NCBI GenBank assembly: GCA_963971535.1
Contig: OZ020589.1
Coordinates: forward strand, 88,397,183-88,461,182
Direction of reading: 5' to 3'
Source: Notolepis coatsorum
Lineage: Eukaryota; Chordata; Actinopteri; Aulopiformes; Paralepididae
Length of the DNA: 64,000 nt
Below the pieces are notes generated by a model, which saw only the letters and a program-made list of their open reading frames with translations, made no database searches and was not told the origin of the DNA. A program made the position numbers and the translations under genes. Of the stretch, positions 12,761-40,199 are shown piece by piece (position 1 is the first letter of the stretch; each line of letters starts with the position of its first letter).

Positions 12761-13409
12761 CACACAGAGAGGACAGAAACCATACAAGAGACAGAAACCA
12801 TACAGAGAGGACAGAAACCATACAGAGGGGACAGAAACCATACAGAGAGGACAGAAACCATACAGCGAGGACAGAAACCACACAGAGAGGACAGAAACCA
12901 CCCAGAGAGGACAGAAACCATACAGAGAGGACAGAAACCATACAAGAGACAGAAACCATACAGAGAGGACAGAAACCATACAGCGAGGACAGAAACAATA
13001 CAGAGAGGACAGAAACCATACAAGAGACAGAAACCATACAGAGAGGACAGAAACCATACAGCGAGGACAGAAACCATACAGAGAAGACAGAAACCACACA
13101 AGAGACAGAAACCATACAGAGAGGACAGAAACCACACAAGAGACAGAAACCACACAGAGAGGACAGAAACCATACAGCGAGGACAGAAACTACACACGAG
13201 ACAGAAACCACACAGAGAGGACAGAAACCATACAGAGAGGACAGAAACCATACAAGAGACAGAAACCATACAGAGAGGACAGAAACCATACAGAGGACAG
13301 AAACCACACAGAGAGGACAGAAACCATACAGAGAGGACAGAAACCATACAGAGAGGACAGAAACCATACAAGAGACAGAAACCATACAGAGAGGACAGAA
13401 ACCATACAG

Positions 13410-13628
13410 AAGCATGTAAACACAACTAAGAGAAACATGTAAACACAACAAAGAGAAGCATGTAAACACAACAAAGAGAAGCATGTAAACACAACAAAGA
13501 CAAACATGTAAACACAACAAAGAGAAACATGTAAACACAACAAAGAGAAGCATGTAAACACAACAAAGAGAAACATGTAAACACAACAAAGAGAAGCATA
13601 TAAACACAACAAAGAGAAGCATGTAAAC
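13410..13628. repeat. 23-bp minisatellite
   Basis: About nine to ten head-to-tail copies of a 23-bp unit containing GCATGTAAACACAACAAAGA, with a G/A variant at the second position of the unit. It directly abuts the 18/20-bp array and is unrelated to it in sequence. Confidence 0.95.
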
Positions 13629-17770: not shown

Positions 17771-17965
17771 TGTGAGGTTTTGTCCGCTGCTCACCAACTT
17801 TCTCTGTTTTCTTTAAGCCTACTGTTAGAAATTCCCTTCTCACTCACTCTCTCTAGCCCCCACCCTCTCGTTCTTTACTCTCGTTTACTCTCAGTGGCCA
17901 CACCTGGACTATTATCAATTACCTCTCGCACCTGTGGTGGCAGGCTAATTAGTTCCCCTGTGGGC

Positions 17966-17973
17966 TTTAAATA
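17966..17973 (+). promoter_or_regulatory. TATA-like box of the LTR
   Basis: TTTAAATA lies about 200 bp into the LTR, followed 25-30 bp later by GC-rich sequence where transcription could start (the U3/R border). The same box recurs in every complete LTR copy of the array. Placement is typical for an LTR promoter, but activity is not shown. Confidence 0.5.
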
Positions 17974-18271
17974 CCAGGGCTCTTCCCCTCGTTTCGGCGT
18001 GGGGTCGTGTTGTATTCATGCTGAGTCATATTCTCTAACATCTAGACTCTTTCGGGAGATCCTCTGGTCTACCAATGCTGTATATGGATTTCTCCAGCCT
18101 TGAGATGTTTTTGCTCCAGCCTTCGTCTGCTGTCGCCGTAGCCTGTGGAGGAGACTGTTCTGCGCTCCCTGTACTTCCACGGGAGGCACCCCAGCGCTCC
18201 ACTGCAGACCCCAGCGCAGCTGTTCGTCCTGACGCACATCTAGACCAACGCGCATCTCCCGGACCCTCGGG

Positions 18272-18600
18272 CTTGGCACGCTCTCCAGTCACCAGCGCGC
18301 AACGCGCATCTGCAAGGGCTTGGCACGCTCTCCAGTCACCAGCGCGCAACGCGCATCTTCAAGGGCTTGGCACGCTCTCCAGTCTCCAGCGCGCAACGCG
18401 CATCTTCCAAGGATCCTCGTGCTTGGCACGCTCTCCAGTCACCAGCGCGCAATGCGCATCTGCAAGGGCTTGGCACGCTCTCCAGTCACCAGCGCGCAAC
18501 GCGCATCTTCAAGGGCTTGGCACGCTCTCCAGTCTCCAGCGCGCAACGCGCATCTTCCAAGGATCCTCGTGCTTGGCACACTCCTCCTCGCAGACGCACC
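18272..18600 (+). repeat. 47-bp tandem repeat in the LTR
   Basis: Seven copies begin CTTGGCACGCTCTCCAG at 18272, 18319, 18366, 18422, 18469, 18516 and 18572. Spacing is 47, 47, 56, 47, 47, 56, so two 150-bp three-unit blocks are present. The block is repeated in each LTR of the array. Confidence 0.95.
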
Positions 18601-18651
18601 CCGAGGCGTCTCTCGGTTCCGACGTGCACACCAAGGTGTGGCGCGCCACTC

Positions 18652-18923
18652 TGTTCCTCGGCTCCGACAGCGGCTACCCGGTGGACGACACCCTCGCCAC
18701 CGCCGCTGTTCCAGCACCCTGTTCCTCGGCTCCGACAGCGGCTACCCGGTGGACGACACCCTCGCCACCGCCGCTGTTCCAGCACTCTGTTCCTCGGCTC
18801 CGACAGCGGCTACCCGGTGGACGACACCCTCGCCACCGCCGCTGTTCCAGCACTCTGTTCCTCGGCTCGGACAGCCAGCTACCCGGTGGCGACACCCTCG
18901 CCGCCGCTGCTGTTCCTGCACCA
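18652..18923 (+). repeat. 68-bp tandem repeat in the LTR
   Basis: Four copies begin TGTTCCTCGGCTC at 18652, 18720, 18788 and 18856; the last is slightly diverged. GC content is much higher than in the surroundings. Confidence 0.95.
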
Positions 18924-19335
18924 TTACGCATACGCCTGGGTGAGTTTTGATTGTGATGTCACTCACCCAGCGTAATGCCTCTTGCCCCCGTCCCGCTGCG
19001 TTTCCTGTACCATTACGCATACGCCTGGGTGAGTTTTGATTGTGATGTCACTCACCCAGCGTAATGCCTCTTGCCCCCGTCCCGCTGCTGTTCCTGCACC
19101 ATTACGCATACGCCTGGGTGAGTTTTGATTGTGATGTCACTCACCCAGCGTAATGCCTCTTGCCCTCGTCCCGCTGCTGTCCCTGTACCATTACGCATAC
19201 GCCTGGGTGAGTTTTGATTGTGATGTCACTCACCCAGCGTAATGCCTCTTGCCCCCGTCCCGCTGCGTTCCTGTACCATTCCGCATACGCTTGGGTGAGT
19301 TTTGATTGTGATGTCACTCACCCAGCGTAATGCCT
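18922..19335 (+). repeat. 89-bp hairpin-forming tandem repeat in the LTR
   Basis: Five copies start with CATTACGC (one reads CATTCCGC) at 18922, 19011, 19100, 19189 and 19277. Within each copy CATTACGC and CTGGGTGAGT are mirrored by ACTCACCCAGCGTAATG about 20 bp later, so each repeat can fold into a stem with the TGATGTCA-containing loop. The LTR therefore carries five consecutive stem-loops. Confidence 0.9.
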
Positions 19336-19341
19336 CCTTTT

Positions 19342-19490
19342 CTTGTTCTCACTTAGTTAGTAGTTTGGACATTTCATCTCCCACTCTGTTTTTGTTCTCA
19401 CTTAGTTAGTAGTTTGGACATTTCATCTCCCACTCTGTTTTTGTTCTCACTTAGATAGTATTTTTGGACATTACATCTCCCCCTGTGTGT
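19342..19490 (+). repeat. ~50-bp tandem repeat in the LTR
   Basis: Three copies begin TTGTTCTCACTTAG at about 19342, 19392 and 19441, the last diverged. They lie between the stem-loop block and the pyrimidine-rich 3' part of the LTR. Confidence 0.85.
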
Positions 19491-20004
19491 TTGTCACACG
19501 AAGATATTATTACTTTGTTACTTTGTTTATTTGGACTGTTCTGCATCTGCTCTGTTTGTTCCCTTTTGAATATTAACCCTCTCCTCTGTTCTGCAGAGCG
19601 GCCCAGATGTTTTCCCACCAGTCCCCAGTTCCTCCCTGTCCCCAGCCCGCCTCCGCGGGCCTCAGTCCCCTCTGTCCCTAGTTCTCCCCTTCTAGTTCCA
19701 CCTAGTTCCTGGTCCCAAGTTCTCCCCTTCTAGTTCCACCTAGTTCCTTGTCCCTAGTTCTCCTAGTCCCCAGTTCTCCTGTTCCCTAGCTCTCCTTGTC
19801 CCGACATCTCCTAGTCTCTAGTTCCTCTGTTTCCTTAACCTTCCCCTAGCGTTCCTTTAATGTTTCCCCTAGCGTTCATTAACCTTCCCTTAGTGTACCC
19901 TTTTCCTGCCCGCCTCTTAAAGGCACCTAGTTTTTCCCCTCTGGTTATATTCCTGTATTTGTGTTCTCCCTTAAAGGGACAGTGCCCTTTTTTCCCTGTC
20001 TCTC

Positions 20005-20010
20005 AATAAA
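20005..20010 (+). promoter_or_regulatory. Poly(A) signal of the LTR
   Basis: AATAAA followed within about 40 bp by TGTCTTGTGTTGTG, a GT-rich downstream element. This marks the likely R/U5 border. The same signal recurs near the end of each LTR in the array. Confidence 0.65.
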
Positions 20011-20080
20011 TATCTGTTTCTTGGCAAACCATCATACCTGTCTTGTGTTGTGCGATTGGGGTCGGTTACAAACCATAACA

Positions 20081-21619
20081 GTACGACCCCACCCAATCGA
20101 CGACCCCAGCCAGCACAGACGGTGTATGTTGAGTTTGCCTTTTTTTTTCTTGTTCCCTCTAGCTCCCCTCTAGCTTCCTTGTTAGCCTGTTAGCTCCCCT
20201 GTTAGCTTGTTGGTCTCCCCGGTTAGCTCCCCTGTTAGCCTGTTGACTCCCCCATTTGCTTCCCTGTTAGCCCTGTTTGACCCCCCTGCAGCTTGTTAGG
20301 CCTCTACTACCAGCATGGCCCTGTCTGCTAGCTTTGCCTCGGCGGCTAGCACAGCCTCTATGTTAATGCAGCCCTTACTGCTGGCATAGGCCCTGTAGCT
20401 AGCCATGCCCTGGCAGCTAACCCAGTCCCTCAGCAGAGCCCCAGTCTGCTAGCTTAGCCCCGGCTGCTAGCACAGCCTCTATGTTTATGCAGCCCTTGCT
20501 GCTGGCATGGGCCCTGTAGCTAGCCATGCCCTGGCAGCTAACCCTGTCCCTCAGCAGAGCCCCAGTCTGCTAGCTTAGCCCCGGCTGCTAGCACAGCCTC
20601 TATGTTAATGCAGCCTTGCAGCTGGCATAGGCCCTGTAGCTAGCCAGGCCCAAGCAGCTAACCCGGTCCCTCTGCATGGCCTCCACTTTTTTGTGTAGTT
20701 TATCCCACTGCTAGGACTGCCCTTTCAGCTAGCAAGGTCAGTTTATCTCCCACTGCTAGGACTGCCTTTTCAGCTAGCAAGGTCAGTTTATCTCTCACTG
20801 CTAGGACTGCCTTTTCAGCTAGCAAGGTCAGTTTTTCTCCCACTGCTAGGACTGCCTTTTCAGCTAGCAAGGTCAGTTTATCTCACACTGCTAGGACTGC
20901 CCTTCAGCTAGCAAGGTCAGTTTATCTCACACAGCTAGGACTGTCCTTCCAGCTAGCTTGTTCTCTCATGCTGGTCCAGCCCTGTCTGCCAGCCTAGCTC
21001 CGGCAGCTAGCGCAGCCTCTATGTTAATGTAGCAGTACAGCTGGCATAGGCCCTGTAGCTATCAGTGCCTTGGCAGCTACCCTTTCCCCCTGCTAGCCTA
21101 GCTCGGCAGCTAGCGCAGCCTCTATGTTGATGTAGCAGTACAGCTAGCATAGGCCCTGTAGCTATCAGTGCCTTGGCAGCTACCCTTTCCCTCTGCTAGC
21201 CCTTTCCCGGTGCTACCATGGTTACCCCTTAGCTACCCTGCTTGCCCCTCAGTTCCTCTAGACCAGTTCCTCTAGACCAGTTCTCTAGACCAGTTCTCTA
21301 GGCCAGTTCTCTAAACCAGTTCTCTAGACCGGTTCTCTAGGCCAGTTCTCTTGGCCAGTTCTCTAGGCTAGTTCTCTGGACCCAGTTCCTCCTGACCCGG
21401 TTCCTCTAGGCCCGGTTTCCTCTAGGCCAGTTCCTCCTGTTGCCCCTCTGCTACCCTAGTTACCCCTCGGCGACCCTGTTTCTTTTGCTAGCCCCACTCT
21501 TGTGGTGGCTTCCCCTGCTGGCTTGGCCAGTACCTTTTGTTTTTGTCTTGTTTTGCCCCCTGCCACTCTGTCTGTATTTGTTTTGGGTCGCCAGGTGGCT
21601 CCCGTTGAGGGGGGGGTAC
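20081..21619 (+). mobile_element. Internal region, copy 1 (1539 bp, no coding capacity)
   Basis: It begins GTACGACCCCACCC after the LTR and ends at the polypurine tract. It is made largely of tandem repeats: about three copies of a ~120-bp unit rich in GCTAGC (20340-20690), six copies of a ~45-bp unit with CAGCTAGCAAGGTCAG (20700-20945), two further ~115-bp units (20990-21190), and many ~17-bp CCAGTTCTCTAGA units (21250-21430). No gag, protease, reverse transcriptase or integrase is recognisable. I could not assign the tRNA primer. Confidence 0.85.
21607..21619 (+). other. Polypurine tract
   Basis: GAGGGGGGGGTAC directly precedes the next LTR. A run of G after GA, just upstream of TG, is the usual plus-strand primer site of vertebrate Gypsy-type elements. 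It recurs before the LTRs at 25469, 32667 and 36516. Confidence 0.75.
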
Positions 21620-23929
21620 TGTGAGGTTTTGTCCGCTGCTCACCAACTTTCTCTGTTTTCTTTAAGCCTACTGTTAGAAATTCCCTTCTCACTCACTCTC
21701 TCTAGCCCCCACCCTCTCGTTCTTTACTCTCGTTTACTCTCAGTGGCCACACCTGGACTATTATCAATTACCTCTCGCACCTGTGGTGGCAGGCTAATTA
21801 GTTCCCCTGTGGGCTTTAAATACCAGGGCTCTTCCCCTCGTTTCGGCGTGGGGTCGTGTTGTATTCATGCTGAGTCATATTCTCTAACATCTAGACTCTT
21901 TCGGGAGATCCTCTGGTCTACCAATGCTGTATATGGATTTCTCCAGCCTTGAGATGTTTTTGCTCCAGCCTTCGTCTGCTGTCGCCGTAGCCTGTGGAGG
22001 AGACTGTTCTGCGCTCCCTGTACTTCCACGGGAGGCACCCCAGCGCTCCACTGCAGACCCCAGCGCAGCTGTTCGTCCTGACGCACATCTAGACCAACGC
22101 GCATCTCCCGGACCCTCGGGCTTGGCACGCTCTCCAGTCACCAGCGCGCAACGCGCATCTGCAAGGGCTTGGCACGCTCTCCAGTCACCAGCGCGCAACG
22201 CGCATCTTCAAGGGCTTGGCACGCTCTCCAGTCTCCAGCGCGCAACGCGCATCTTCCAAGGATCCTCGTGCTTGGCACGCTCTCCAGTCACCAGCGCGCA
22301 ATGCGCATCTGCAAGGGCTTGGCACGCTCTCCAGTCACCAGCGCGCAACGCGCATCTTCAAGGGCTTGGCACGCTCTCCAGTCTCCAGCGCGCAACGCGC
22401 ATCTTCCAAGGATCCTCGTGCTTGGCACACTCCTCCTCGCAGACGCACCCCGAGGCGTCTCTCGGTTCCGACGTGCACACCAAGGTGTGGCGCGCCACTC
22501 TGTTCCTCGGCTCCGACAGCGGCTACCCGGTGGACGACACCCTCGCCACCGCCGCTGTTCCAGCACCCTGTTCCTCGGCTCCGACAGCGGCTACCCGGTG
22601 GACGACACCCTCGCCACCGCCGCTGTTCCAGCACTCTGTTCCTCGGCTCCGACAGCGGCTACCCGGTGGACGACACCCTCGCCACCGCCGCTGTTCCAGC
22701 ACTCTGTTCCTCGGCTCGGACAGCCAGCTACCCGGTGGCGACACCCTCGCCGCCGCTGCTGTTCCTGCACCATTACGCATACGCCTGGGTGAGTTTTGAT
22801 TGTGATGTCACTCACCCAGCGTAATGCCTCTTGCCCCCGTCCCGCTGCGTTTCCTGTACCATTACGCATACGCCTGGGTGAGTTTTGATTGTGATGTCAC
22901 TCACCCAGCGTAATGCCTCTTGCCCCCGTCCCGCTGCTGTTCCTGCACCATTACGCATACGCCTGGGTGAGTTTTGATTGTGATGTCACTCACCCAGCGT
23001 AATGCCTCTTGCCCTCGTCCCGCTGCTGTCCCTGTACCATTACGCATACGCCTGGGTGAGTTTTGATTGTGATGTCACTCACCCAGCGTAATGCCTCTTG
23101 CCCCCGTCCCGCTGCGTTCCTGTACCATTCCGCATACGCTTGGGTGAGTTTTGATTGTGATGTCACTCACCCAGCGTAATGCCTCCTTTTCTTGTTCTCA
23201 CTTAGTTAGTAGTTTGGACATTTCATCTCCCACTCTGTTTTTGTTCTCACTTAGTTAGTAGTTTGGACATTTCATCTCCCACTCTGTTTTTGTTCTCACT
23301 TAGATAGTATTTTTGGACATTACATCTCCCCCTGTGTGTTTGTCACACGAAGATATTATTACTTTGTTACTTTGTTTATTTGGACTGTTCTGCATCTGCT
23401 CTGTTTGTTCCCTTTTGAATATTAACCCTCTCCTCTGTTCTGCAGAGCGGCCCAGATGTTTTCCCACCAGTCCCCAGTTCCTCCCTGTCCCCAGCCCGCC
23501 TCCGCGGGCCTCAGTCCCCTCTGTCCCTAGTTCTCCCCTTCTAGTTCCACCTAGTTCCTGGTCCCAAGTTCTCCCCTTCTAGTTCCACCTAGTTCCTTGT
23601 CCCTAGTTCTCCTAGTCCCCAGTTCTCCTGTTCCCTAGCTCTCCTTGTCCCGACATCTCCTAGTCTCTAGTTCCTCTGTTTCCTTAACCTTCCCCTAGCG
23701 TTCCTTTAATGTTTCCCCTAGCGTTCATTAACCTTCCCTTAGTGTACCCTTTTCCTGCCCGCCTCTTAAAGGCACCTAGTTTTTCCCCTCTGGTTATATT
23801 CCTGTATTTGTGTTCTCCCTTAAAGGGACAGTGCCCTTTTTTCCCTGTCTCTCAATAAATATCTGTTTCTTGGCAAACCATCATACCTGTCTTGTGTTGT
23901 GCGATTGGGGTCGGTTACAAACCATAACA
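21620..23929 (+). repeat. LTR copy 2
   Basis: 2310 bp and nearly identical to copy 1 throughout, including all four internal repeat blocks. Confidence 0.9.
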
Positions 23930-25468
23930 GTACGACCCCACCCAATCGACGACCCCAGCCAGCACAGACGGTGTATGTTGAGTTTGCCTTTTTTTTTCTT
24001 GTTCCCTCTAGCTCCCCTCTAGCTTCCTTGTTAGCCTGTTAGCTCCCCTGTTAGCTTGTTGGTCTCCCCGGTTAGCTCCCCTGTTAGCCTGTTGACTCCC
24101 CCATTTGCTTCCCTGTTAGCCCTGTTTGACCCCCCTGCAGCTTGTTAGGCCTCTACTACCAGCATGGCCCTGTCTGCTAGCTTTGCCTCGGCGGCTAGCA
24201 CAGCCTCTATGTTAATGCAGCCCTTACTGCTGGCATAGGCCCTGTAGCTAGCCATGCCCTGGCAGCTAACCCAGTCCCTCAGCAGAGCCCCAGTCTGCTA
24301 GCTTAGCCCCGGCTGCTAGCACAGCCTCTATGTTTATGCAGCCCTTGCTGCTGGCATGGGCCCTGTAGCTAGCCATGCCCTGGCAGCTAACCCTGTCCCT
24401 CAGCAGAGCCCCAGTCTGCTAGCTTAGCCCCGGCTGCTAGCACAGCCTCTATGTTAATGCAGCCTTGCAGCTGGCATAGGCCCTGTAGCTAGCCAGGCCC
24501 AAGCAGCTAACCCGGTCCCTCTGCATGGCCTCCACTTTTTTGTGTAGTTTATCCCACTGCTAGGACTGCCCTTTCAGCTAGCAAGGTCAGTTTATCTCCC
24601 ACTGCTAGGACTGCCTTTTCAGCTAGCAAGGTCAGTTTATCTCTCACTGCTAGGACTGCCTTTTCAGCTAGCAAGGTCAGTTTTTCTCCCACTGCTAGGA
24701 CTGCCTTTTCAGCTAGCAAGGTCAGTTTATCTCACACTGCTAGGACTGCCCTTCAGCTAGCAAGGTCAGTTTATCTCACACAGCTAGGACTGTCCTTCCA
24801 GCTAGCTTGTTCTCTCATGCTGGTCCAGCCCTGTCTGCCAGCCTAGCTCCGGCAGCTAGCGCAGCCTCTATGTTAATGTAGCAGTACAGCTGGCATAGGC
24901 CCTGTAGCTATCAGTGCCTTGGCAGCTACCCTTTCCCCCTGCTAGCCTAGCTCGGCAGCTAGCGCAGCCTCTATGTTGATGTAGCAGTACAGCTAGCATA
25001 GGCCCTGTAGCTATCAGTGCCTTGGCAGCTACCCTTTCCCTCTGCTAGCCCTTTCCCGGTGCTACCATGGTTACCCCTTAGCTACCCTGCTTGCCCCTCA
25101 GTTCCTCTAGACCAGTTCCTCTAGACCAGTTCTCTAGACCAGTTCTCTAGGCCAGTTCTCTAAACCAGTTCTCTAGACCGGTTCTCTAGGCCAGTTCTCT
25201 TGGCCAGTTCTCTAGGCTAGTTCTCTGGACCCAGTTCCTCCTGACCCGGTTCCTCTAGGCCCGGTTTCCTCTAGGCCAGTTCCTCCTGTTGCCCCTCTGC
25301 TACCCTAGTTACCCCTCGGCGACCCTGTTTCTTTTGCTAGCCCCACTCTTGTGGTGGCTTCCCCTGCTGGCTTGGCCAGTACCTTTTGTTTTTGTCTTGT
25401 TTTGCCCCCTGCCACTCTGTCTGTATTTGTTTTGGGTCGCCAGGTGGCTCCCGTTGAGGGGGGGGTAC
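23930..25468 (+). mobile_element. Internal region, copy 2
   Basis: 1539 bp, same repeat blocks and polypurine tract as copy 1; I saw no differences on reading. Confidence 0.85.
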
Positions 25469-27778
25469 TGTGAGGTTTTGTCCGCTGCTCACCAACTTTC
25501 TCTGTTTTCTTTAAGCCTACTGTTAGAAATTCCCTTCTCACTCACTCTCTCTAGCCCCCACCCTCTCGTTCTTTACTCTCGTTTACTCTCAGTGGCCACA
25601 CCTGGACTATTATCAATTACCTCTCGCACCTGTGGTGGCAGGCTAATTAGTTCCCCTGTGGGCTTTAAATACCAGGGCTCTTCCCCTCGTTTCGGCGTGG
25701 GGTCGTGTTGTATTCATGCTGAGTCATATTCTCTAACATCTAGACTCTTTCGGGAGATCCTCTGGTCTACCAATGCTGTATATGGATTTCTCCAGCCTTG
25801 AGATGTTTTTGCTCCAGCCTTCGTCTGCTGTCGCCGTAGCCTGTGGAGGAGACTGTTCTGCGCTCCCTGTACTTCCACGGGAGGCACCCCAGCGCTCCAC
25901 TGCAGACCCCAGCGCAGCTGTTCGTCCTGACGCACATCTAGACCAACGCGCATCTCCCGGACCCTCGGGCTTGGCACGCTCTCCAGTCACCAGCGCGCAA
26001 CGCGCATCTGCAAGGGCTTGGCACGCTCTCCAGTCACCAGCGCGCAACGCGCATCTTCAAGGGCTTGGCACGCTCTCCAGTCTCCAGCGCGCAACGCGCA
26101 TCTTCCAAGGATCCTCGTGCTTGGCACGCTCTCCAGTCACCAGCGCGCAACGCGCATCTGCAAGGGCTTGGCACGCTCTCCAGTCACCAGCGCGCAACGC
26201 GCATCTTCAAGGGCTTGGCACGCTCTCCAGTCTCCAGCGCGCAACGCGCATCTTCCAAGGATCCTCGTGCTTGGCACACTCCTCCTCGCAGACGCACCCC
26301 GAGGCGTCTCTCGGTTCCGACGTGCACACCAAGGTGTGGCGCGCCACTCTGTTCCTCGGCTCCGACAGCGGCTACCCGGTGGACGACACCCTCGCCACCG
26401 CCGCTGTTCCAGCACCCTGTTCCTCGGCTCCGACAGCGGCTACCCGGTGGACGACACCCTCGCCACCGCCGCTGTTCCAGCACTCTGTTCCTCGGCTCCG
26501 ACAGCGGCTACCCGGTGGACGACACCCTCGCCACCGCCGCTGTTCCAGCACTCTGTTCCTCGGCTCGGACAGCCAGCTACCCGGTGGCGACACCCTCGCC
26601 GCCGCTGCTGTTCCTGCACCATTACGCATACGCCTGGGTGAGTTTTGATTGTGATGTCACTCACCCAGCGTAATGCCTCTTGCCCCCGTCCCGCTGCGTT
26701 TCCTGTACCATTACGCATACGCCTGGGTGAGTTTTGATTGTGATGTCACTCACCCAGCGTAATGCCTCTTGCCCCCGTCCCGCTGCTGTTCCTGCACCAT
26801 TACGCATACGCCTGGGTGAGTTTTGATTGTGATGTCACTCACCCAGCGTAATGCCTCTTGCCCTCGTCCCGCTGCTGTCCCTGTACCATTACGCATACGC
26901 CTGGGTGAGTTTTGATTGTGATGTCACTCACCCAGCGTAATGCCTCTTGCCCCCGTCCCGCTGCGTTCCTGTACCATTCCGCATACGCTTGGGTGAGTTT
27001 TGATTGTGATGTCACTCACCCAGCGTAATGCCTCCTTTTCTTGTTCTCACTTAGTTAGTAGTTTGGACATTTCATCTCCCACTCTGTTTTTGTTCTCACT
27101 TAGTTAGTAGTTTGGACATTTCATCTCCCACTCTGTTTTTGTTCTCACTTAGATAGTATTTTTGGACATTACATCTCCCCCTGTGTGTTTGTCACACGAA
27201 GATATTATTACTTTGTTACTTTGTTTATTTGGACTGTTCTGCATCTGCTCTGTTTGTTCCCTTTTGAATATTAACCCTCTCCTCTGTTCTGCAGAGCGGC
27301 CCAGATGTTTTCCCACCAGTCCCCAGTTCCTCCCTGTCCCCAGCCCGCCTCCGCGGGCCTCAGTCCCCTCTGTCCCTAGTTCTCCCCTTCTAGTTCCACC
27401 TAGTTCCTGGTCCCAAGTTCTCCCCTTCTAGTTCCACCTAGTTCCTTGTCCCTAGTTCTCCTAGTCCCCAGTTCTCCTGTTCCCTAGCTCTCCTTGTCCC
27501 GACATCTCCTAGTCTCTAGTTCCTCTGTTTCCTTAACCTTCCCCTAGCGTTCCTTTAATGTTTCCCCTAGCGTTCATTAACCTTCCCTTAGTGTACCCTT
27601 TTCCTGCCCGCCTCTTAAAGGCACCTAGTTTTTCCCCTCTGGTTATATTCCTGTATTTGTGTTCTCCCTTAAAGGGACAGTGCCCTTTTTTCCCTGTCTC
27701 TCAATAAATATCTGTTTCTTGGCAAACCATCATACCTGTCTTGTGTTGTGCGATTGGGGTCGGTTACAAACCATAACA
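25469..27778 (+). repeat. LTR copy 3
   Basis: 2310 bp. It shares a single-base variant in the 47-bp repeat block with copies 4-6 but not with copies 1-2. Confidence 0.9.
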
Positions 27779-29278
27779 GTACGACCCCACCCAATCGACG
27801 ACCCCAGCCAGCACAGACGGTGTATGTTGAGTTTGCCTTTTTTTTTCTTGTTCCCTCTAGCTCCCCTCTAGCTTCCTTGTTAGCCTGTTAGCTCCCCTGT
27901 TAGCTTGTTGGTCTCCCCGGTTAGCTCCCCTGTTAGCCTGTTGACTCCCCCATTTGCTTCCCTGTTAGCCCTGTTTGACCCCCCTGCAGCTTGTTAGGCC
28001 TCTACTACCAGCATGGCCCTGTCTGCTAGCTTTGCCTCGGCGGCTAGCACAGCCTCTATGTTAATGCAGCCCTTACTGCTGGCATAGGCCCTGTAGCTAG
28101 CCATGCCCTGGCAGCTAACCCAGTCCCTCAGCAGAGCCCCAGTCTGCTAGCTTAGCCCCGGCTGCTAGCACAGCCTCTATGTTTATGCAGCCCTTGCTGC
28201 TGGCATGGGCCCTGTAGCTAGCCATGCCCTGGCAGCTAACCCTGTCCCTCAGCAGAGCCCCAGTCTGCTAGCTTAGCCCCGGCTGCTAGCACAGCCTCTA
28301 TGTTAATGCAGCCTTGCAGCTGGCATAGGCCCTGTAGCTAGCCAGGCCCAAGCAGCTAACCCGGTCCCTCTGCATGGCCTCCACTTTTTTGTGTAGTTTA
28401 TCCCACTGCTAGGACTGCCCTTTCAGCTAGCAAGGTCAGTTTATCTCCCACTGCTAGGACTGCCTTTTCAGCTAGCAAGGTCAGTTTATCTCTCACTGCT
28501 AGGACTGCCTTTTCAGCTAGCAAGGTCAGTTTTTCTCCCACTGCTAGGACTGCCTTTTCAGCTAGCAAGGTCAGTTTATCTCACACTGCTAGGACTGCCC
28601 TTCAGCTAGCAAGGTCAGTTTATCTCACACAGCTAGGACTGTCCTTCCAGCTAGCTTGTTCTCTCATGCTGGTCCAGCCCTGTCTGCCAGCCTAGCTCCG
28701 GCAGCTAGCGCAGCCTCTATGTTAATGTAGCAGTACAGCTGGCATAGGCCCTGTAGCTATCAGTGCCTTGGCAGCTACCCTTTCCCCCTGCTAGCCTAGC
28801 TCGGCAGCTAGCGCAGCCTCTATGTTGATGTAGCAGTACAGCTAGCATAGGCCCTGTAGCTATCAGTGCCTTGGCAGCTACCCTTTCCCTCTGCTAGCCC
28901 TTTCCCGGTGCTACCATGGTTACCCCTTAGCTACCCTGCTTGCCCCTCAGTTCCTCTAGACCAGTTCCTCTAGACCAGTTCTCTAGACCAGTTCTCTAGG
29001 CCAGTTCTCTAAACCAGTTCTCTAGACCGGTTCTCTAGGCCAGTTCTCTTGGCCAGTTCTCTAGGCTAGTTCTCTGGACCCAGTTCCTCCTGACCCGGTT
29101 CCTCTAGGCCCGGTTTCCTCTAGGCCAGTTCCTCCTGTTGCCCCTCTGCTACCCTAGTTACCCCTCGGCGACCCTGTTTCTTTTGCTAGCCCCACTCTTG
29201 TGGTGGCTTCCCCTGCTGGCTTGGCCAGTACCTTTTGTTTTTGTCTTGTTTTGCCCCCTGCCACTCTGTCTGTATTTG
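27779..29278 (+). mobile_element. Internal region, copy 3
   Basis: About 1.5 kb, the same repeat blocks as the other internal copies. It joins a partial LTR, so this unit of the array is about 500 bp shorter than the others. Confidence 0.85.
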
Positions 29279-31127
29279 ACGCACATCTAGACCAACGCGC
29301 ATCTCCCGGACCCTCGGGCTTGGCACGCTCTCCAGTCACCAGCGCGCAACGCGCATCTGCAAGGGCTTGGCACGCTCTCCAGTCACCAGCGCGCAACGCG
29401 CATCTTCAAGGGCTTGGCACGCTCTCCAGTCTCCAGCGCGCAACGCGCATCTTCCAAGGATCCTCGTGCTTGGCACGCTCTCCAGTCACCAGCGCGCAAC
29501 GCGCATCTGCAAGGGCTTGGCACGCTCTCCAGTCACCAGCGCGCAACGCGCATCTTCAAGGGCTTGGCACGCTCTCCAGTCTCCAGCGCGCAACGCGCAT
29601 CTTCCAAGGATCCTCGTGCTTGGCACACTCCTCCTCGCAGACGCACCCCGAGGCGTCTCTCGGTTCCGACGTGCACACCAAGGTGTGGCGCGCCACTCTG
29701 TTCCTCGGCTCCGACAGCGGCTACCCGGTGGACGACACCCTCGCCACCGCCGCTGTTCCAGCACCCTGTTCCTCGGCTCCGACAGCGGCTACCCGGTGGA
29801 CGACACCCTCGCCACCGCCGCTGTTCCAGCACTCTGTTCCTCGGCTCCGACAGCGGCTACCCGGTGGACGACACCCTCGCCACCGCCGCTGTTCCAGCAC
29901 TCTGTTCCTCGGCTCGGACAGCCAGCTACCCGGTGGCGACACCCTCGCCGCCGCTGCTGTTCCTGCACCATTACGCATACGCCTGGGTGAGTTTTGATTG
30001 TGATGTCACTCACCCAGCGTAATGCCTCTTGCCCCCGTCCCGCTGCGTTTCCTGTACCATTACGCATACGCCTGGGTGAGTTTTGATTGTGATGTCACTC
30101 ACCCAGCGTAATGCCTCTTGCCCCCGTCCCGCTGCTGTTCCTGCACCATTACGCATACGCCTGGGTGAGTTTTGATTGTGATGTCACTCACCCAGCGTAA
30201 TGCCTCTTGCCCTCGTCCCGCTGCTGTCCCTGTACCATTACGCATACGCCTGGGTGAGTTTTGATTGTGATGTCACTCACCCAGCGTAATGCCTCTTGCC
30301 CCCGTCCCGCTGCGTTCCTGTACCATTCCGCATACGCTTGGGTGAGTTTTGATTGTGATGTCACTCACCCAGCGTAATGCCTCCTTTTCTTGTTCTCACT
30401 TAGTTAGTAGTTTGGACATTTCATCTCCCACTCTGTTTTTGTTCTCACTTAGTTAGTAGTTTGGACATTTCATCTCCCACTCTGTTTTTGTTCTCACTTA
30501 GATAGTATTTTTGGACATTACATCTCCCCCTGTGTGTTTGTCACACGAAGATATTATTACTTTGTTACTTTGTTTATTTGGACTGTTCTGCATCTGCTCT
30601 GTTTGTTCCCTTTTGAATATTAACCCTCTCCTCTGTTCTGCAGAGCGGCCCAGATGTTTTCCCACCAGTCCCCAGTTCCTCCCTGTCCCCAGCCCGCCTC
30701 CGCGGGCCTCAGTCCCATCTGTCCCTAGTTCTCCCCTTCTAGTTCCACCTAGTTCCTGGTCCCAAGTTCTCCCCTTCTAGTTCCACCTAGTTCCTTGTCC
30801 CTAGTTCTCCTAGTCCCCAGTTCTCCTGTTCCCTAGCTCTCCTTGTCCCGACATCTCCTAGTCTCTAGTTCCTCTGTTTCCTTAACCTTCCCCTAGCGTT
30901 CCTTTAATGTTTCCCCTAGCGTTCATTAACCTTCCCTTAGTGTACCCTTTTCCTGCCCGCCTCTTAAAGGCACCTAGTTTTTCCCCTCTGGTTATATTCC
31001 TGTATTTGTGTTCTCCCTTAAAGGGACAGTGCCCTTTTTTCCCTGTCTCTCAATAAATATCTGTTTCTTGGCAAACCATCATACCTGTCTTGTGTTGTGC
31101 GATTGGGGTCGGTTACAAACCATAACA
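29279..31127 (+). repeat. LTR copy 4 (partial)
   Basis: It holds all four repeat blocks, the poly(A) signal and the CATAACA end. It shares a base variant near the 3' pyrimidine-rich part with copy 5 only. Confidence 0.88.
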
Positions 31128-32666
31128 GTACGACCCCACCCAATCGACGACCCCAGCCAGCACAGACGGTGTATGTTGAGTTTGCCTTTTTTTTTCTTGT
31201 TCCCTCTAGCTCCCCTCTAGCTTCCTTGTTAGCCTGTTAGCTCCCCTGTTAGCTTGTTGGTCTCCCCGGTTAGCTCCCCTGTTAGCCTGTTGACTCCCCC
31301 ATTTGCTTCCCTGTTAGCCCTGTTTGACCCCCCTGCAGCTTGTTAGGCCTCTACTACCAGCATGGCCCTGTCTGCTAGCTTTGCCTCGGCGGCTAGCACA
31401 GCCTCTATGTTAATGCAGCCCTTACTGCTGGCATAGGCCCTGTAGCTAGCCATGCCCTGGCAGCTAACCCAGTCCCTCAGCAGAGCCCCAGTCTGCTAGC
31501 TTAGCCCCGGCTGCTAGCACAGCCTCTATGTTTATGCAGCCCTTGCTGCTGGCATGGGCCCTGTAGCTAGCCATGCCCTGGCAGCTAACCCTGTCCCTCA
31601 GCAGAGCCCCAGTCTGCTAGCTTAGCCCCGGCTGCTAGCACAGCCTCTATGTTAATGCAGCCTTGCAGCTGGCATAGGCCCTGTAGCTAGCCAGGCCCAA
31701 GCAGCTAACCCGGTCCCTCTGCATGGCCTCCACTTTTTTGTGTAGTTTATCCCACTGCTAGGACTGCCCTTTCAGCTAGCAAGGTCAGTTTATCTCCCAC
31801 TGCTAGGACTGCCTTTTCAGCTAGCAAGGTCAGTTTATCTCTCACTGCTAGGACTGCCTTTTCAGCTAGCAAGGTCAGTTTTTCTCCCACTGCTAGGACT
31901 GCCTTTTCAGCTAGCAAGGTCAGTTTATCTCACACTGCTAGGACTGCCCTTCAGCTAGCAAGGTCAGTTTATCTCACACAGCTAGGACTGTCCTTCCAGC
32001 TAGCTTGTTCTCTCATGCTGGTCCAGCCCTGTCTGCCAGCCTAGCTCCGGCAGCTAGCGCAGCCTCTATGTTAATGTAGCAGTACAGCTGGCATAGGCCC
32101 TGTAGCTATCAGTGCCTTGGCAGCTACCCTTTCCCCCTGCTAGCCTAGCTCGGCAGCTAGCGCAGCCTCTATGTTGATGTAGCAGTACAGCTAGCATAGG
32201 CCCTGTAGCTATCAGTGCCTTGGCAGCTACCCTTTCCCTCTGCTAGCCCTTTCCCGGTGCTACCATGGTTACCCCTTAGCTACCCTGCTTGCCCCTCAGT
32301 TCCTCTAGACCAGTTCCTCTAGACCAGTTCTCTAGACCAGTTCTCTAGGCCAGTTCTCTAAACCAGTTCTCTAGACCGGTTCTCTAGGCCAGTTCTCTTG
32401 GCCAGTTCTCTAGGCTAGTTCTCTGGACCCAGTTCCTCCTGACCCGGTTCCTCTAGGCCCGGTTTCCTCTAGGCCAGTTCCTCCTGTTGCCCCTCTGCTA
32501 CCCTAGTTACCCCTCGGCGACCCTGTTTCTTTTGCTAGCCCCACTCTTGTGGTGGCTTCCCCTGCTGGCTTGGCCAGTACCTTTTGTTTTTGTCTTGTTT
32601 TGCCCCCTGCCACTCTGTCTGTATTTGTTTTGGGTCGCCAGGTGGCTCCCGTTGAGGGGGGGGTAC
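31128..32666 (+). mobile_element. Internal region, copy 4
   Basis: 1539 bp, same content as copy 1, ending in the polypurine tract. Confidence 0.85.
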
Positions 32667-34976
32667 TGTGAGGTTTTGTCCGCTGCTCACCAACTTTCTC
32701 TGTTTTCTTTAAGCCTACTGTTAGAAATTCCCTTCTCACTCACTCTCTCTAGCCCCCACCCTCTCGTTCTTTACTCTCGTTTACTCTCAGTGGCCACACC
32801 TGGACTATTATCAATTACCTCTCGCACCTGTGGTGGCAGGCTAATTAGTTCCCCTGTGGGCTTTAAATACCAGGGCTCTTCCCCTCGTTTCGGCGTGGGG
32901 TCGTGTTGTATTCATGCTGAGTCATATTCTCTAACATCTAGACTCTTTCGGGAGATCCTCTGGTCTACCAATGCTGTATATGGATTTCTCCAGCCTTGAG
33001 ATGTTTTTGCTCCAGCCTTCGTCTGCTGTCGCCGTAGCCTGTGGAGGAGACTGTTCTGCGCTCCCTGTACTTCCACGGGAGGCACCCCAGCGCTCCACTG
33101 CAGACCCCAGCGCAGCTGTTCGTCCTGACGCACATCTAGACCAACGCGCATCTCCCGGACCCTCGGGCTTGGCACGCTCTCCAGTCACCAGCGCGCAACG
33201 CGCATCTGCAAGGGCTTGGCACGCTCTCCAGTCACCAGCGCGCAACGCGCATCTTCAAGGGCTTGGCACGCTCTCCAGTCTCCAGCGCGCAACGCGCATC
33301 TTCCAAGGATCCTCGTGCTTGGCACGCTCTCCAGTCACCAGCGCGCAACGCGCATCTGCAAGGGCTTGGCACGCTCTCCAGTCACCAGCGCGCAACGCGC
33401 ATCTTCAAGGGCTTGGCACGCTCTCCAGTCTCCAGCGCGCAACGCGCATCTTCCAAGGATCCTCGTGCTTGGCACACTCCTCCTCGCAGACGCACCCCGA
33501 GGCGTCTCTCGGTTCCGACGTGCACACCAAGGTGTGGCGCGCCACTCTGTTCCTCGGCTCCGACAGCGGCTACCCGGTGGACGACACCCTCGCCACCGCC
33601 GCTGTTCCAGCACCCTGTTCCTCGGCTCCGACAGCGGCTACCCGGTGGACGACACCCTCGCCACCGCCGCTGTTCCAGCACTCTGTTCCTCGGCTCCGAC
33701 AGCGGCTACCCGGTGGACGACACCCTCGCCACCGCCGCTGTTCCAGCACTCTGTTCCTCGGCTCGGACAGCCAGCTACCCGGTGGCGACACCCTCGCCGC
33801 CGCTGCTGTTCCTGCACCATTACGCATACGCCTGGGTGAGTTTTGATTGTGATGTCACTCACCCAGCGTAATGCCTCTTGCCCCCGTCCCGCTGCGTTTC
33901 CTGTACCATTACGCATACGCCTGGGTGAGTTTTGATTGTGATGTCACTCACCCAGCGTAATGCCTCTTGCCCCCGTCCCGCTGCTGTTCCTGCACCATTA
34001 CGCATACGCCTGGGTGAGTTTTGATTGTGATGTCACTCACCCAGCGTAATGCCTCTTGCCCTCGTCCCGCTGCTGTCCCTGTACCATTACGCATACGCCT
34101 GGGTGAGTTTTGATTGTGATGTCACTCACCCAGCGTAATGCCTCTTGCCCCCGTCCCGCTGCGTTCCTGTACCATTCCGCATACGCTTGGGTGAGTTTTG
34201 ATTGTGATGTCACTCACCCAGCGTAATGCCTCCTTTTCTTGTTCTCACTTAGTTAGTAGTTTGGACATTTCATCTCCCACTCTGTTTTTGTTCTCACTTA
34301 GTTAGTAGTTTGGACATTTCATCTCCCACTCTGTTTTTGTTCTCACTTAGATAGTATTTTTGGACATTACATCTCCCCCTGTGTGTTTGTCACACGAAGA
34401 TATTATTACTTTGTTACTTTGTTTATTTGGACTGTTCTGCATCTGCTCTGTTTGTTCCCTTTTGAATATTAACCCTCTCCTCTGTTCTGCAGAGCGGCCC
34501 AGATGTTTTCCCACCAGTCCCCAGTTCCTCCCTGTCCCCAGCCCGCCTCCGCGGGCCTCAGTCCCATCTGTCCCTAGTTCTCCCCTTCTAGTTCCACCTA
34601 GTTCCTGGTCCCAAGTTCTCCCCTTCTAGTTCCACCTAGTTCCTTGTCCCTAGTTCTCCTAGTCCCCAGTTCTCCTGTTCCCTAGCTCTCCTTGTCCCGA
34701 CATCTCCTAGTCTCTAGTTCCTCTGTTTCCTTAACCTTCCCCTAGCGTTCCTTTAATGTTTCCCCTAGCGTTCATTAACCTTCCCTTAGTGTACCCTTTT
34801 CCTGCCCGCCTCTTAAAGGCACCTAGTTTTTCCCCTCTGGTTATATTCCTGTATTTGTGTTCTCCCTTAAAGGGACAGTGCCCTTTTTTCCCTGTCTCTC
34901 AATAAATATCTGTTTCTTGGCAAACCATCATACCTGTCTTGTGTTGTGCGATTGGGGTCGGTTACAAACCATAACA
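32667..34976 (+). repeat. LTR copy 5
   Basis: 2310 bp, complete. Confidence 0.9.
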
Positions 34977-36515
34977 GTACGACCCCACCCAATCGACGAC
35001 CCCAGCCAGCACAGACGGTGTATGTTGAGTTTGCCTTTTTTTTTCTTGTTCCCTCTAGCTCCCCTCTAGCTTCCTTGTTAGCCTGTTAGCTCCCCTGTTA
35101 GCTTGTTGGTCTCCCCGGTTAGCTCCCCTGTTAGCCTGTTGACTCCCCCATTTGCTTCCCTGTTAGCCCTGTTTGACCCCCCTGCAGCTTGTTAGGCCTC
35201 TACTACCAGCATGGCCCTGTCTGCTAGCTTTGCCTCGGCGGCTAGCACAGCCTCTATGTTAATGCAGCCCTTACTGCTGGCATAGGCCCTGTAGCTAGCC
35301 ATGCCCTGGCAGCTAACCCAGTCCCTCAGCAGAGCCCCAGTCTGCTAGCTTAGCCCCGGCTGCTAGCACAGCCTCTATGTTTATGCAGCCCTTGCTGCTG
35401 GCATGGGCCCTGTAGCTAGCCATGCCCTGGCAGCTAACCCTGTCCCTCAGCAGAGCCCCAGTCTGCTAGCTTAGCCCCGGCTGCTAGCACAGCCTCTATG
35501 TTAATGCAGCCTTGCAGCTGGCATAGGCCCTGTAGCTAGCCAGGCCCAAGCAGCTAACCCGGTCCCTCTGCATGGCCTCCACTTTTTTGTGTAGTTTATC
35601 CCACTGCTAGGACTGCCCTTTCAGCTAGCAAGGTCAGTTTATCTCCCACTGCTAGGACTGCCTTTTCAGCTAGCAAGGTCAGTTTATCTCTCACTGCTAG
35701 GACTGCCTTTTCAGCTAGCAAGGTCAGTTTTTCTCCCACTGCTAGGACTGCCTTTTCAGCTAGCAAGGTCAGTTTATCTCACACTGCTAGGACTGCCCTT
35801 CAGCTAGCAAGGTCAGTTTATCTCACACAGCTAGGACTGTCCTTCCAGCTAGCTTGTTCTCTCATGCTGGTCCAGCCCTGTCTGCCAGCCTAGCTCCGGC
35901 AGCTAGCGCAGCCTCTATGTTAATGTAGCAGTACAGCTGGCATAGGCCCTGTAGCTATCAGTGCCTTGGCAGCTACCCTTTCCCCCTGCTAGCCTAGCTC
36001 GGCAGCTAGCGCAGCCTCTATGTTGATGTAGCAGTACAGCTAGCATAGGCCCTGTAGCTATCAGTGCCTTGGCAGCTACCCTTTCCCTCTGCTAGCCCTT
36101 TCCCGGTGCTACCATGGTTACCCCTTAGCTACCCTGCTTGCCCCTCAGTTCCTCTAGACCAGTTCCTCTAGACCAGTTCTCTAGACCAGTTCTCTAGGCC
36201 AGTTCTCTAAACCAGTTCTCTAGACCGGTTCTCTAGGCCAGTTCTCTTGGCCAGTTCTCTAGGCTAGTTCTCTGGACCCAGTTCCTCCTGACCCGGTTCC
36301 TCTAGGCCCGGTTTCCTCTAGGCCAGTTCCTCCTGTTGCCCCTCTGCTACCCTAGTTACCCCTCGGCGACCCTGTTTCTTTTGCTAGCCCCACTCTTGTG
36401 GTGGCTTCCCCTGCTGGCTTGGCCAGTACCTTTTGTTTTTGTCTTGTTTTGCCCCCTGCCACTCTGTCTGTATTTGTTTTGGGTCGCCAGGTGGCTCCCG
36501 TTGAGGGGGGGGTAC
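34977..36515 (+). mobile_element. Internal region, copy 5
   Basis: 1539 bp, same content as copy 1, ending in the polypurine tract. Confidence 0.85.
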
Positions 36516-38825
36516 TGTGAGGTTTTGTCCGCTGCTCACCAACTTTCTCTGTTTTCTTTAAGCCTACTGTTAGAAATTCCCTTCTCACTCACTCTCTCTA
36601 GCCCCCACCCTCTTGTTCTTTACTCTCGTTTACTCTCAGTGGCCACACCTGGACTATTATCAATTACCTCTCGCACCTGTGGTGGCAGGCTAATTAGTTC
36701 CCCTGTGGGCTTTAAATACCAGGGCTCTTCCCCTCGTTTCGGCGTGGGGTCGTGTTGTATTCATGCTGAGTCATATTCTCTAACATCTAGACTCTTTCGG
36801 GAGATCCTCTGGTCTACCAATGCTGTATATGGATTTCTCCAGCCTTGAGATGTTTTTGCTCCAGCCTTCGTCTGCTGTCGCCGTAGCCTGTGGAGGAGAC
36901 TGTTCTGCGCTCCCTGTACTTCCACGGGAGGCACCCCAGCGCTCCACTGCAGACCCCAGCGCAGCTGTTCGTCCTGACGCACATCTAGACCAACGCGCAT
37001 CTCCCGGACCCTCGGGCTTGGCACGCTCTCCAGTCACCAGCGCGCAACGCGCATCTGCAAGGGCTTGGCACGCTCTCCAGTCACCAGCGCGCAACGCGCA
37101 TCTTCAAGGGCTTGGCACGCTCTCCAGTCTCCAGCGCGCAACGCGCATCTTCCAAGGATCCTCGTGCTTGGCACGCTCTCCAGTCACCAGCGCGCAACGC
37201 GCATCTGCAAGGGCTTGGCACGCTCTCCAGTCACCAGCGCGCAACGCGCATCTTCAAGGGCTTGGCACGCTCTCCAGTCTCCAGCGCGCAACGCGCATCT
37301 TCCAAGGATCCTCGTGCTTGGCACACTCCTCCTCGCAGACGCACCCCGAGGCGTCTCTCGGTTCCGACGTGCACACCAAGGTGTGGCGCGCCACTCTGTT
37401 CCTCGGCTCCGACAGCGGCTACCCGGTGGACGACACCCTCGCCACCGCCGCTGTTCCAGCACCCTGTTCCTCGGCTCCGACAGCGGCTACCCGGTGGACG
37501 ACACCCTCGCCACCGCCGCTGTTCCAGCACTCTGTTCCTCGGCTCCGACAGCGGCTACCCGGTGGACGACACCCTCGCCACCGCCGCTGTTCCAGCACTC
37601 TGTTCCTCGGCTCGGACAGCCAGCTACCCGGTGGCGACACCCTCGCCGCCGCTGCTGTTCCTGCACCATTACGCATACGCCTGGGTGAGTTTTGATTGTG
37701 ATGTCACTCACCCAGCGTAATGCCTCTTGCCCCCGTCCCGCTGCGTTTCCTGTACCATTACGCATACGCCTGGGTGAGTTTTGATTGTGATGTCACTCAC
37801 CCAGCGTAATGCCTCTTGCCCCCGTCCCGCTGCTGTTCCTGCACCATTACGCATACGCCTGGGTGAGTTTTGATTGTGATGTCACTCACCCAGCGTAATG
37901 CCTCTTGCCCTCGTCCCGCTGCTGTCCCTGTACCATTACGCATACGCCTGGGTGAGTTTTGATTGTGATGTCACTCACCCAGCGTAATGCCTCTTGCCCC
38001 CGTCCCGCTGCGTTCCTGTACCATTCCGCATACGCTTGGGTGAGTTTTGATTGTGATGTCACTCACCCAGCGTAATGCCTTCTTTTCTTGTTCTCACTTA
38101 GTTAGTAGTTTGGACATTTCATCTCCCACTCTGTTTTTGTTCTCACTTAGTTAGTAGTTTGGACATTTCATCTCCCACTCTGTTTTTGTTCTCACTTAGA
38201 TAGTATTTTTGGACATTACATCTCCCCCTGTGTGTTTGTCACACGAAGATATTATTACTTTGTTACTTTGTTTATTTGGACTGTTCTGCATCTGCTCTGT
38301 TTGTTCCCTTTTGAATATTAACCCTCTCCTCTGTTCTGCAGAGCGGCCCAGATGTTTTCCCACCAGTCCCCAGTTCCTCCCTGTCCCCAGCCCGCCTCCG
38401 CGGGCCTCAGTCCCCTCTGTCCCTAGTTCTCCCCTTCTAGTTCCACCTAGTTCCTGGTCCCAAGTTCTCCCCTTCTAGTTCCACCTAGTTCCTTGTCCCT
38501 AGTTCTCCTAGTCCCCAGTTCTCCTGTTCCCTAGCTCTCCTTGTCCCGACATCTCCTAGTCTCTAGTTCCTCTGTTTCCTTAACCTTCCCCTAGCGTTCC
38601 TTTAATGTTTCCCCTAGCGTTCATTAACCTTCCCTTAGTGTACCCTTTTCCTGCCCGCCTCTTAAAGGCACCTAGTTTTTCCCCTCTGGTTATATTCCTG
38701 TATTTGTGTTCTCCCTTAAAGGGACAGTGCCCTTTTTTCCCTGTCTCTCAATAAATATCTGTTTCTTGGCAAACCATCATACCTGTCTTGTGTTGTGCGA
38801 TTGGGGTCGGTTACAAACCATAACA
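36516..38825 (+). repeat. LTR copy 6, right end of the array
   Basis: 2310 bp, complete, followed directly by GATTG and the LINE. By eye it differs from copy 1 at about three positions only. Confidence 0.9.
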
Positions 38826-38830
38826 GATTG
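38826..38830. repeat. Target-site duplication, right copy (GATTG)
   Basis: Matches 17766-17770 and belongs to the interrupted LINE sequence. Confidence 0.9.
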
Positions 38831-40009: not shown

Positions 40010-40199
40010 CAGTGGCGTCGTTAGCCCTGGGCTTCCGGGGCTTTAGCCCCGGATGTTTTTCTCCTAGCCCCGGATCTAAAAAATAAAAATAAAAAATTGT
40101 TACGTTTTTTTCTTTTTTTTTTACTTTTTACTTTTTACTTTTTCTTTTTTTATATGTCAGCATCCCCATTGTCTGTGCTGAATGTTTGTTAGTGTTTGG

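What the first reader, a model, noticed from the sequence alone, without database searches (positions are those of the whole stretch)
17771..38825. A 21-kb head-to-tail array of one LTR retrotransposon inside a single target duplication
Six LTRs alternate with five internal regions at a 3849-bp period, and only the outermost edges have the GATTG duplication, inside a LINE gene that reads straight through when the array is set aside. One insertion therefore seems to have been amplified in place by repeated unequal LTR-LTR exchange. The usual result of such exchange is loss to a solo LTR; stable gain to this size is unusual. Arrays of this kind are one known way that satellites are born from LTR elements.
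Basis: partly seen in the sequence, partly recalled or inferred. Interest (0 to 1): 0.85.

Follow-up and report, generated by a model that had tools for sequence, protein, structure and literature searches.

The report
Tandem LTR retrotransposon array, one insertion
One insertion of a non-coding LTR retrotransposon seems to have multiplied in place into five head-to-tail units, and the same genome holds more, smaller arrays of this family, so the process can be studied there although such arrays are already known from plants and other animals.

Summary
Confirmed, with one correction. Window 17771-38825 holds six LTRs and five internal regions (INT) of one element, period 3849, inside one 5-bp duplication (GATTG), in a LINE frame that reads through when the array is set aside. 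The element is non-coding; longer relatives carry chromovirus genes. Its primer site covaries with the putative RNA start in three sequence types, as in Tf1/sushi self-priming. It is not a lone oddity: 7 of 88 and 7 of 90 listed junction clusters are multi-unit (two loci in both lists; one of the 88 is an ordinary duplication; two are copies of each other). Periods differ between loci while units within an array match, so arrays grow from one insertion. In-place LTR-LTR exchange is favoured here: two SNPs are each shared by neighbouring LTRs. The family-wide age test is weakened by CpG content (P=0.0005; 0.067 without CpG), and middle LTRs are not short of private variants. Such arrays are published. 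No reads were available.

The parts
17766..17770 (+). left copy of the 5-bp target duplication GATTG
   Evidence: junction found once in the genome
17771..20080 (+). LTR1, 2310 bp, TG...CA
17966..17973 (+). TATA-like TTTAAATA in LTR1
17999..18008 (+). putative start of R, GTGGGGTCGT, complementary to the primer site (candidate self-primer)
20005..20010 (+). AATAAA polyadenylation signal in LTR1
20081..21619 (+). INT1, 1539 bp, short tandem repeats, no coding domain found
20083..20092 (+). candidate primer-binding site ACGACCCCAC
21607..21619 (+). polypurine tract GAGGGGGGGG plus TAC before the next LTR
21620..23929 (+). LTR2 (identical to LTR1)
23930..25468 (+). INT2
25469..27778 (+). LTR3
27779..29276 (+). 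INT3, lacking its last 41 bp with the polypurine tract
29277..29278 (+). breakpoint of the 500-bp deletion, 2-bp overlap TG
29277..31127 (+). LTR4, first 459 bp (promoter part) deleted
31128..32666 (+). INT4
32667..34976 (+). LTR5 (shares 1900A with LTR4)
34977..36515 (+). INT5
36516..38825 (+). LTR6 (private T at positions 99 and 1566)
38826..38830 (+). right copy of the target duplication GATTG
16601..17770 (-). 3' part of the LINE frame (reverse transcriptase), the interrupted target
38831..40042 (-). 5' part of the LINE frame (endonuclease-like end)

Best explanation
A single copy of a non-coding LTR element, probably moved by the proteins of a related chromovirus, inserted into a LINE and made the 5-bp GATTG duplication. 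Later, misaligned homologous exchange between LTRs of sister chromatids or homologues added whole LTR-INT units step by step, to five units. A separate 500-bp deletion truncated the fourth LTR. Shown: single insertion site, unit structure, near-identity, SNPs shared by neighbouring LTRs, deletion. Inferred: the exchange itself, the number of steps (four in the simplest expansion-only model), and the self-primed life cycle.
For: Duplication at the outer edges only and site found once in the genome. Five INTs with 0 substitutions, while LTR1 and LTR6 differ by 3 of 2310. 683T (TpG where the others have CpG, so probably derived) is shared only by LTR1-LTR2, and 1900A (rarer state) only by LTR4-LTR5, which independent mutation in a ready-made concatemer would not readily give. 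Nine further independent loci with the same LTRn-INT(n-1) layout, each with its own first period (3221 to 3910 bp) and INTs that differ by 0-1 substitution in 8 of the 9 (C4:43.48 Mb: 5); INT lengths agree to 0-2 bp in 8 of the 9 (C1:292.34 Mb: 1631 and 3277). A 4-LTR array (C32) has its 5 LTR differences all on the last LTR (P=0.004 if the four were equally old). Over ten arrays: 51 LTR substitutions in 74711 bp against 7 INT substitutions in 34726 bp, P=0.0005 for equal age. Solo LTRs, the reciprocal product, exist: of 8 single-LTR loci fetched (chosen from 28 for having no INT-LTR junction hit) 5 have perfect 5-bp duplications.
Against: LTRs have about four times the CpG density of INT; without CpG sites the age test drops to 19 against 4, P=0.067. 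For the window array alone it is not significant (P=0.16). Middle LTRs of the eight 3-LTR arrays carry as many private variants (13 of 42) as first and last LTRs, which simple recent exchange does not predict. Array C4:43.48 Mb has 5 INT against 4 LTR substitutions, as if doubled at or before insertion. C1:292.34 Mb shows no single crossover order. 188 of 360 LTR reorderings also fit the exchange model.
Confidence: 0.75

Rival explanations
1. A concatemer formed before integration (template switching, or read-through of a one-LTR circle or of an existing array) and was inserted as one piece with one target duplication.
For: It also gives one outer duplication. Array C4:43.48 Mb has INT and LTR divergence of similar size; private variants of middle LTRs are not depleted. 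The rice study leaves this route open (PMC11899658 Discussion).
Against: SNPs shared by neighbouring LTRs in the window array; all differences on one LTR in C32; fewer INT than LTR substitutions overall (weaker without CpG). The ten independent arrays have ten different first periods, so no compound element is seen to spread.
Confidence: 0.15
2. cDNA or circular DNA of other family members was inserted by homologous recombination into the resident LTR.
For: The 2025 rice paper cites yeast work on such integration into existing elements. The first 600 bp of the window LTR has near-identical matches (identity printed as 100%) at 35 other places among the 40 full-length matches scored, so this part alone cannot tell units of the array from other copies.
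Against: LTR pairs elsewhere have very different spacings (2849-5529 bp in 28 pairs). First units of other arrays differ from the window's unit in length and over the whole LTR (C7 64/2309, C8 126/2246), though their aligned INT parts can be close (C7 4/1231, with 331 gap bases). The window units agree in length and in every aligned INT base.
Confidence: 0.06
3. Assembly artefact: one or two units were multiplied by the assembler.
For: Units 1 and 2 are identical over 3849 bp; no reads can be examined here.
Against: The longest exact repeat is 4531 bp, shorter than usual long reads (general knowledge). LTR3, LTR4, LTR5 and LTR6 differ in their combination of marks (683C alone; the 500-bp deletion; 1900A without the deletion; 99T and 1566T). 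Two- and three-unit arrays at other loci look the same, though they come from the same assembly.
Confidence: 0.04

Closest known systems
Tandem LTR-retrotransposons sharing internal LTRs in rice and other plants (TLI1, TLI2; PMC11899658, 2025; abstract, Background, Discussion and search passages read)
   Same: Alternating LTR and INT in one target duplication, high identity of units, 82% of 28 selected rice tandems gypsy-related.
   Different: Plants; the selected rice tandems encode protein domains; the authors could not decide between exchange and compound insertion. Here: non-coding element, five units, ten arrays of one family compared.
Cassandra TRIM arrays in plants (PMC7215508; abstract and Discussion read)
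   Same: Non-autonomous element, alternating LTR/INT, up to 12 repeats; both mechanisms discussed.
   Different: Very short element with 5S sequences in its LTRs; here 2.3-kb LTRs with a TATA-like promoter.
biv-TRIM in bivalves (PMC6934838; search passages read)
   Same: Animal TRIM with TDRx_I(x-1) arrays, longest TDR58_I57.
   Different: Miniature element; no clear priming mechanism could be proposed there.
Tf1/sushi chromoviruses (PMC6317226, search passages read; Butler et al. 2001 seen only in its reference list)
   Same: A coding relative (L042) has gag, RT, RNase H, integrase and chromodomain matches; the primer site is complementary to the putative RNA start.
   Different: The window element has no coding capacity and has long LTRs full of short tandem repeats.
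Kangaroo centromeric arrays with shared LTRs (seen only as cited in PMC11899658)
   Same: Tandem LTR elements with shared internal LTRs in a vertebrate.
   Different: Centromeric; this array lies at 88.4 Mb of contig C13, and no centromere test was done.

Membership tests
Tandem LTR-retrotransposon array (shared LTRs) | Alternating LTR and INT, starting and ending with an LTR | tested here: met
   (one LTR truncated)
Tandem LTR-retrotransposon array (shared LTRs) | Target duplication only at the outer edges | tested here: met
Tandem LTR-retrotransposon array (shared LTRs) | Units derived from one insertion | tested here: met
   no INT substitution within the window array; first units of other arrays differ
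Tandem LTR-retrotransposon array (shared LTRs) | Copy number polymorphic between individuals | not testable with these tools
   one assembly only
Ty3/gypsy chromovirus (coding relative L042) | gag, protease, RT, RNase H, integrase and chromodomain | tested here: met
   on four pieces of L042: Retrotrans_gag, RVT_1, RT_RNaseH, Integrase_H2C2, rve, SH3_Tf2-1 and Chromo above cut-off; the two protease models below cut-off. L043 and L044 were not scanned
Ty3/gypsy chromovirus, Tf1/sushi group (coding relatives) | Placed within Tf1/sushi by an RT-IN tree | not tested
   no tree built
Ty3/gypsy chromovirus, Tf1/sushi group (window element) | Encodes the chromovirus proteins | tested here: not met
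   0 Pfam matches (E<=0.001) in the 10 stop-free stretches of 100 aa or more of the unit; filed only as a non-autonomous relative
Tf1-type self-priming | Primer site complementary to the 5' end of the RNA | tested here: met
   9-12 nt within each sequence type, 4-7 across types; the first INT of C32 keeps only 7 nt (private change). The RNA end itself is only inferred from a TATA-like box
Tf1-type self-priming | RNA start mapped at the complement; primer cleaved from the RNA | not testable with these tools
   no RNA data
TRIM | Miniature size | tested here: not met
   LTR 2310 bp, INT 1539 bp; the TRIM size limit is recalled
LARD | Large non-coding internal domain between LTRs | tested here: inconclusive
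   non-coding with large LTRs, but INT only 1.5 kb; LARD size is recalled

The most novel reading that the evidence does not exclude
This chromovirus-derived family is unusually prone to in-place tandem growth because its LTRs are long (2.3 kb or more in the window's subfamily) and consist largely of short tandem repeats, which promote LTR-LTR misalignment. With many small arrays on many chromosomes, its genome is a natural experiment that can decide the open question of exchange against compound insertion, array by array, from LTR and INT mutation patterns.
Probability: 0.35. Interest if true: 0.65.

Novelty: new member of a known kind. Interest (0 to 1): 0.45.

Why it matters
Tandem LTR arrays are one route from dispersed elements to satellite-like DNA, and the 2025 plant study says the mechanism is unresolved (PMC11899658). 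Here is a family with 1830 INT-LTR junction hits in one genome, with 7 of 88 and 7 of 90 listed clusters multi-unit, so exchange and compound insertion make different, countable predictions. The window array shows growth to five units and the start of decay (the 500-bp deletion).

Tried and rejected
Nested or neighbouring independent insertions: rejected, no inner target duplications. Order of LTR haplotypes as proof of exchange: rejected as proof, 188 of 360 reorderings fit. LTR-versus-INT age test: first looked strong and was supported by seven segmentally duplicated copies (INT 3 substitutions in 1660 columns, LTRs 6 in 4677), but CpG density differs four-fold and the CpG-free test is only suggestive. 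Middle-LTR hybrid order (left like last LTR, right like first): met in three of the four arrays that have both kinds of site, not in C1:292.34; too few to decide. Rfam, tRNA and one viral-contig pattern scan: 0 hits each. The C1:8.88-Mb array (8 LTRs) was dropped from the counts of the ten because its unit contains about 448 bp of target flank and 1127 bp of INT, an ordinary tandem duplication. C1:85.49 was dropped as a segmental duplicate of C1:85.43 (same duplication and edge flanks, first unit identical). A search in another subfamily gave 22 hits, with only the two arrays already known; two further subfamily patterns and the LTR-to-INT junction pattern did not complete.

Full report
OBSERVATION. 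The array is real and its edges are as given. Self-comparison of the window finds the 3849-bp unit at 17771, 21620, 25469, 32667 and 36516 (the last as LTR only), plus a truncated unit starting at 29277. The LTR is 2310 bp with TG...CA ends, INT is 1539 bp, a G-rich tract precedes each full inner LTR, and GATTG lies only at the two outer edges. Only four single-base differences exist in the array, all in LTRs. The LINE frame runs 794 codons without a stop across the joined flanks and has an RVT_1 match at E=1.2e-26 in one half and a sub-threshold endonuclease match in the other. A 30-mer across the left junction occurs once in the genome.

WHAT THE ELEMENT IS. The unit is full of short tandem repeats, and none of its 10 stop-free stretches of 100 aa or more has a Pfam match. 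The window lies in a 3.42-Gb genome (C13:88397183-88461182). A 25-mer of the LTR start, up to one mismatch, has 3649 hits, and its reversed control 0. Three loci with LTR spacing near 5.5 kb were fetched. Their LTRs are 1013-1097 bp and their 5-bp target duplications match. The one scanned with Pfam, L042, has Retrotrans_gag, RVT_1, RNase H, integrase (zinc-binding and core), a Tf2-1-like SH3 domain and a chromodomain above cut-off; protease models stay below it. These loci share the first 15 and last 10 bases of the LTR and the primer arrangement with the window element, so I infer that they are coding chromovirus relatives; that they move the window element is inference.

PRIMING. The first bases of INT pair perfectly over 10 nt with LTR 229-238, 33 nt after the start of a TATA-like box. 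Of 20000 shuffles 39 reach this; of 16600 20-mers from the right flank of the window, both strands, 4 reach it; a weaker complement also lies near the LTR end. The pairing covaries. ACGACCCCAC faces GTGGGGTCGT, ACGACCCGAC faces GTCGGGTCGT, and in the coding relatives ACGATCCAAC faces GTTGGATCGT, each about 30 nt after a TATA-like or TTTAAGTA stretch. In a 16 by 16 comparison INT starts match LTRs of their own type over 9-12 nt and other types over 4-7 nt; the exception is the first INT of C32, which has a private change and reaches at most 7 nt. This is the Tf1/sushi self-priming arrangement, which is described for vertebrate elements (PMC6317226 passages).

THE ARRAY IS ONE OF MANY. The first 100 LTR-start hits (C1, 1-184 Mb) form 60 clusters: 28 singles, 28 pairs, 3 triples and one of seven. 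The first 100 of 1830 INT-to-LTR junction hits (C1 and part of C4) form 88 clusters: 81 single, 6 double, one of seven. An exact 100-mer for the window's own subfamily has 127 hits; the 100 listed form 90 clusters, 7 of them multi-unit, the largest being the window's. The lists overlap: C1:85.43 and C1:85.49 are in all three, and they are copies of each other. I fetched the 11 other arrays in these lists. One (C1:8.88 Mb) is an ordinary tandem duplication that includes target flank, and C1:85.49 repeats C1:85.43. The remaining nine, with the window, make ten independent arrays: eight of 3 LTRs, one of 4 and the window's six. Outer duplications match at 5 bp in eight of ten; C32 has one mismatch (CTGTG/CTCTG) and C35 reads as 6 bp (CAAAAC). 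Of eight single-LTR loci fetched (chosen from the 28 because they lack a junction hit), five are solo LTRs with perfect duplications; three were not confirmed.

MECHANISM. First periods range from 3221 to 3910 bp and differ between all ten arrays. INT substitutions within an array are 0 in seven arrays, 1 in two and 5 in one; INT lengths agree to 0-2 bp except in C1:292.34 (1631 and 3277) and next to the window's deletion. First units of different arrays differ by large gaps and mostly by many bases, though some aligned INT parts are close (window against C7 4/1231, against C1:85.43 5/1146), and the first 600 bp of the LTR is near-identical at 35 other scored places. The equal lengths within arrays therefore carry most of the argument that each array grew from one insertion. 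Whether growth was after integration is a separate question. For: in the window, 683T is shared by LTR1-2 and 1900A by LTR4-5; in C32 all five LTR differences sit on the last LTR; overall there are 51 LTR against 7 INT substitutions, P=0.0005, and seven segmentally duplicated copies (3 INT and 6 LTR substitutions) give no sign that INT is protected from mutation. Against: LTRs are CpG-rich, and the CpG-free count is 19 against 4, P=0.067; private variants of middle LTRs are not depleted, 13 of 42 in the eight 3-LTR arrays; C4:43.48 Mb has as much INT as LTR divergence. Both routes may operate in the family. For the window array, in-place exchange is the better account. The simplest expansion-only history needs four exchanges, but the same model also fits 188 of 360 reorderings, so the order of events is not established.

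ARTEFACT. The longest exact repeat in the array is 4531 bp, and LTR3 to LTR6 differ in their combination of marks. Mainly the count of the identical units 1 and 2 could be wrong. No reads were available.

COMPARISON. Tandem LTR elements with shared LTRs are known in rice and other plants (PMC11899658), in Cassandra (PMC7215508) and in bivalve TRIMs up to TDR58_I57 (PMC6934838); kangaroo centromeres are cited in the first. My literature searches listed no paper whose title or opening abstract lines describe such arrays of a vertebrate chromovirus, but the library holds open-licence papers only and I read parts of five papers. The kind is known; the open mechanism question and the size of this family make it useful.

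Noticed in passing
window 1-13410: A 13.4-kb array of a 20-bp repeat (about 686 copies) lies 4 kb upstream of the retrotransposon array, followed by 23-bp and 13-bp tandem repeats.
   Followed up: no
window 14259-15864: A probable long inverted-repeat element: arms at about 14259-14763 and 15471-15864 match inversely at about 97%, with a 144-bp tandem repeat inside; a 13-bp repeat array lies on its left.
   Followed up: partly
G000:C1:7070247-7962553 (L026-L032): Seven copies of one retrotransposon insertion with the same target duplication; six lie about 135 kb apart in the same orientation, which suggests a large tandem segmental duplication.
   Followed up: partly
G000:C1:8876900-8906600 (L009-L011): An eight-LTR array of another kind: the repeated unit holds the LTR, about 448 bp of right target flank and 1127 bp of the internal region.
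   Followed up: yes
L042, L043, L044: Relatives with LTRs of about 1.0-1.1 kb and matching target duplications; long coding frames were listed in L042 and L044, and in L042 and L043 the two LTRs have equal length (1097 bp).
   Followed up: partly
L045-L046 (C32:6.74 Mb): The four-LTR array is inserted near the 3' end of another LTR of the same family: the right flank continues with the LTR-end sequence about 150 bp further on.
   Followed up: no
L022-L023 (C1:292.34 Mb): A 3-LTR array whose second internal region is 1646 bp longer than the first (3277 against 1631 bp), although the aligned parts differ by one base.
   Followed up: no
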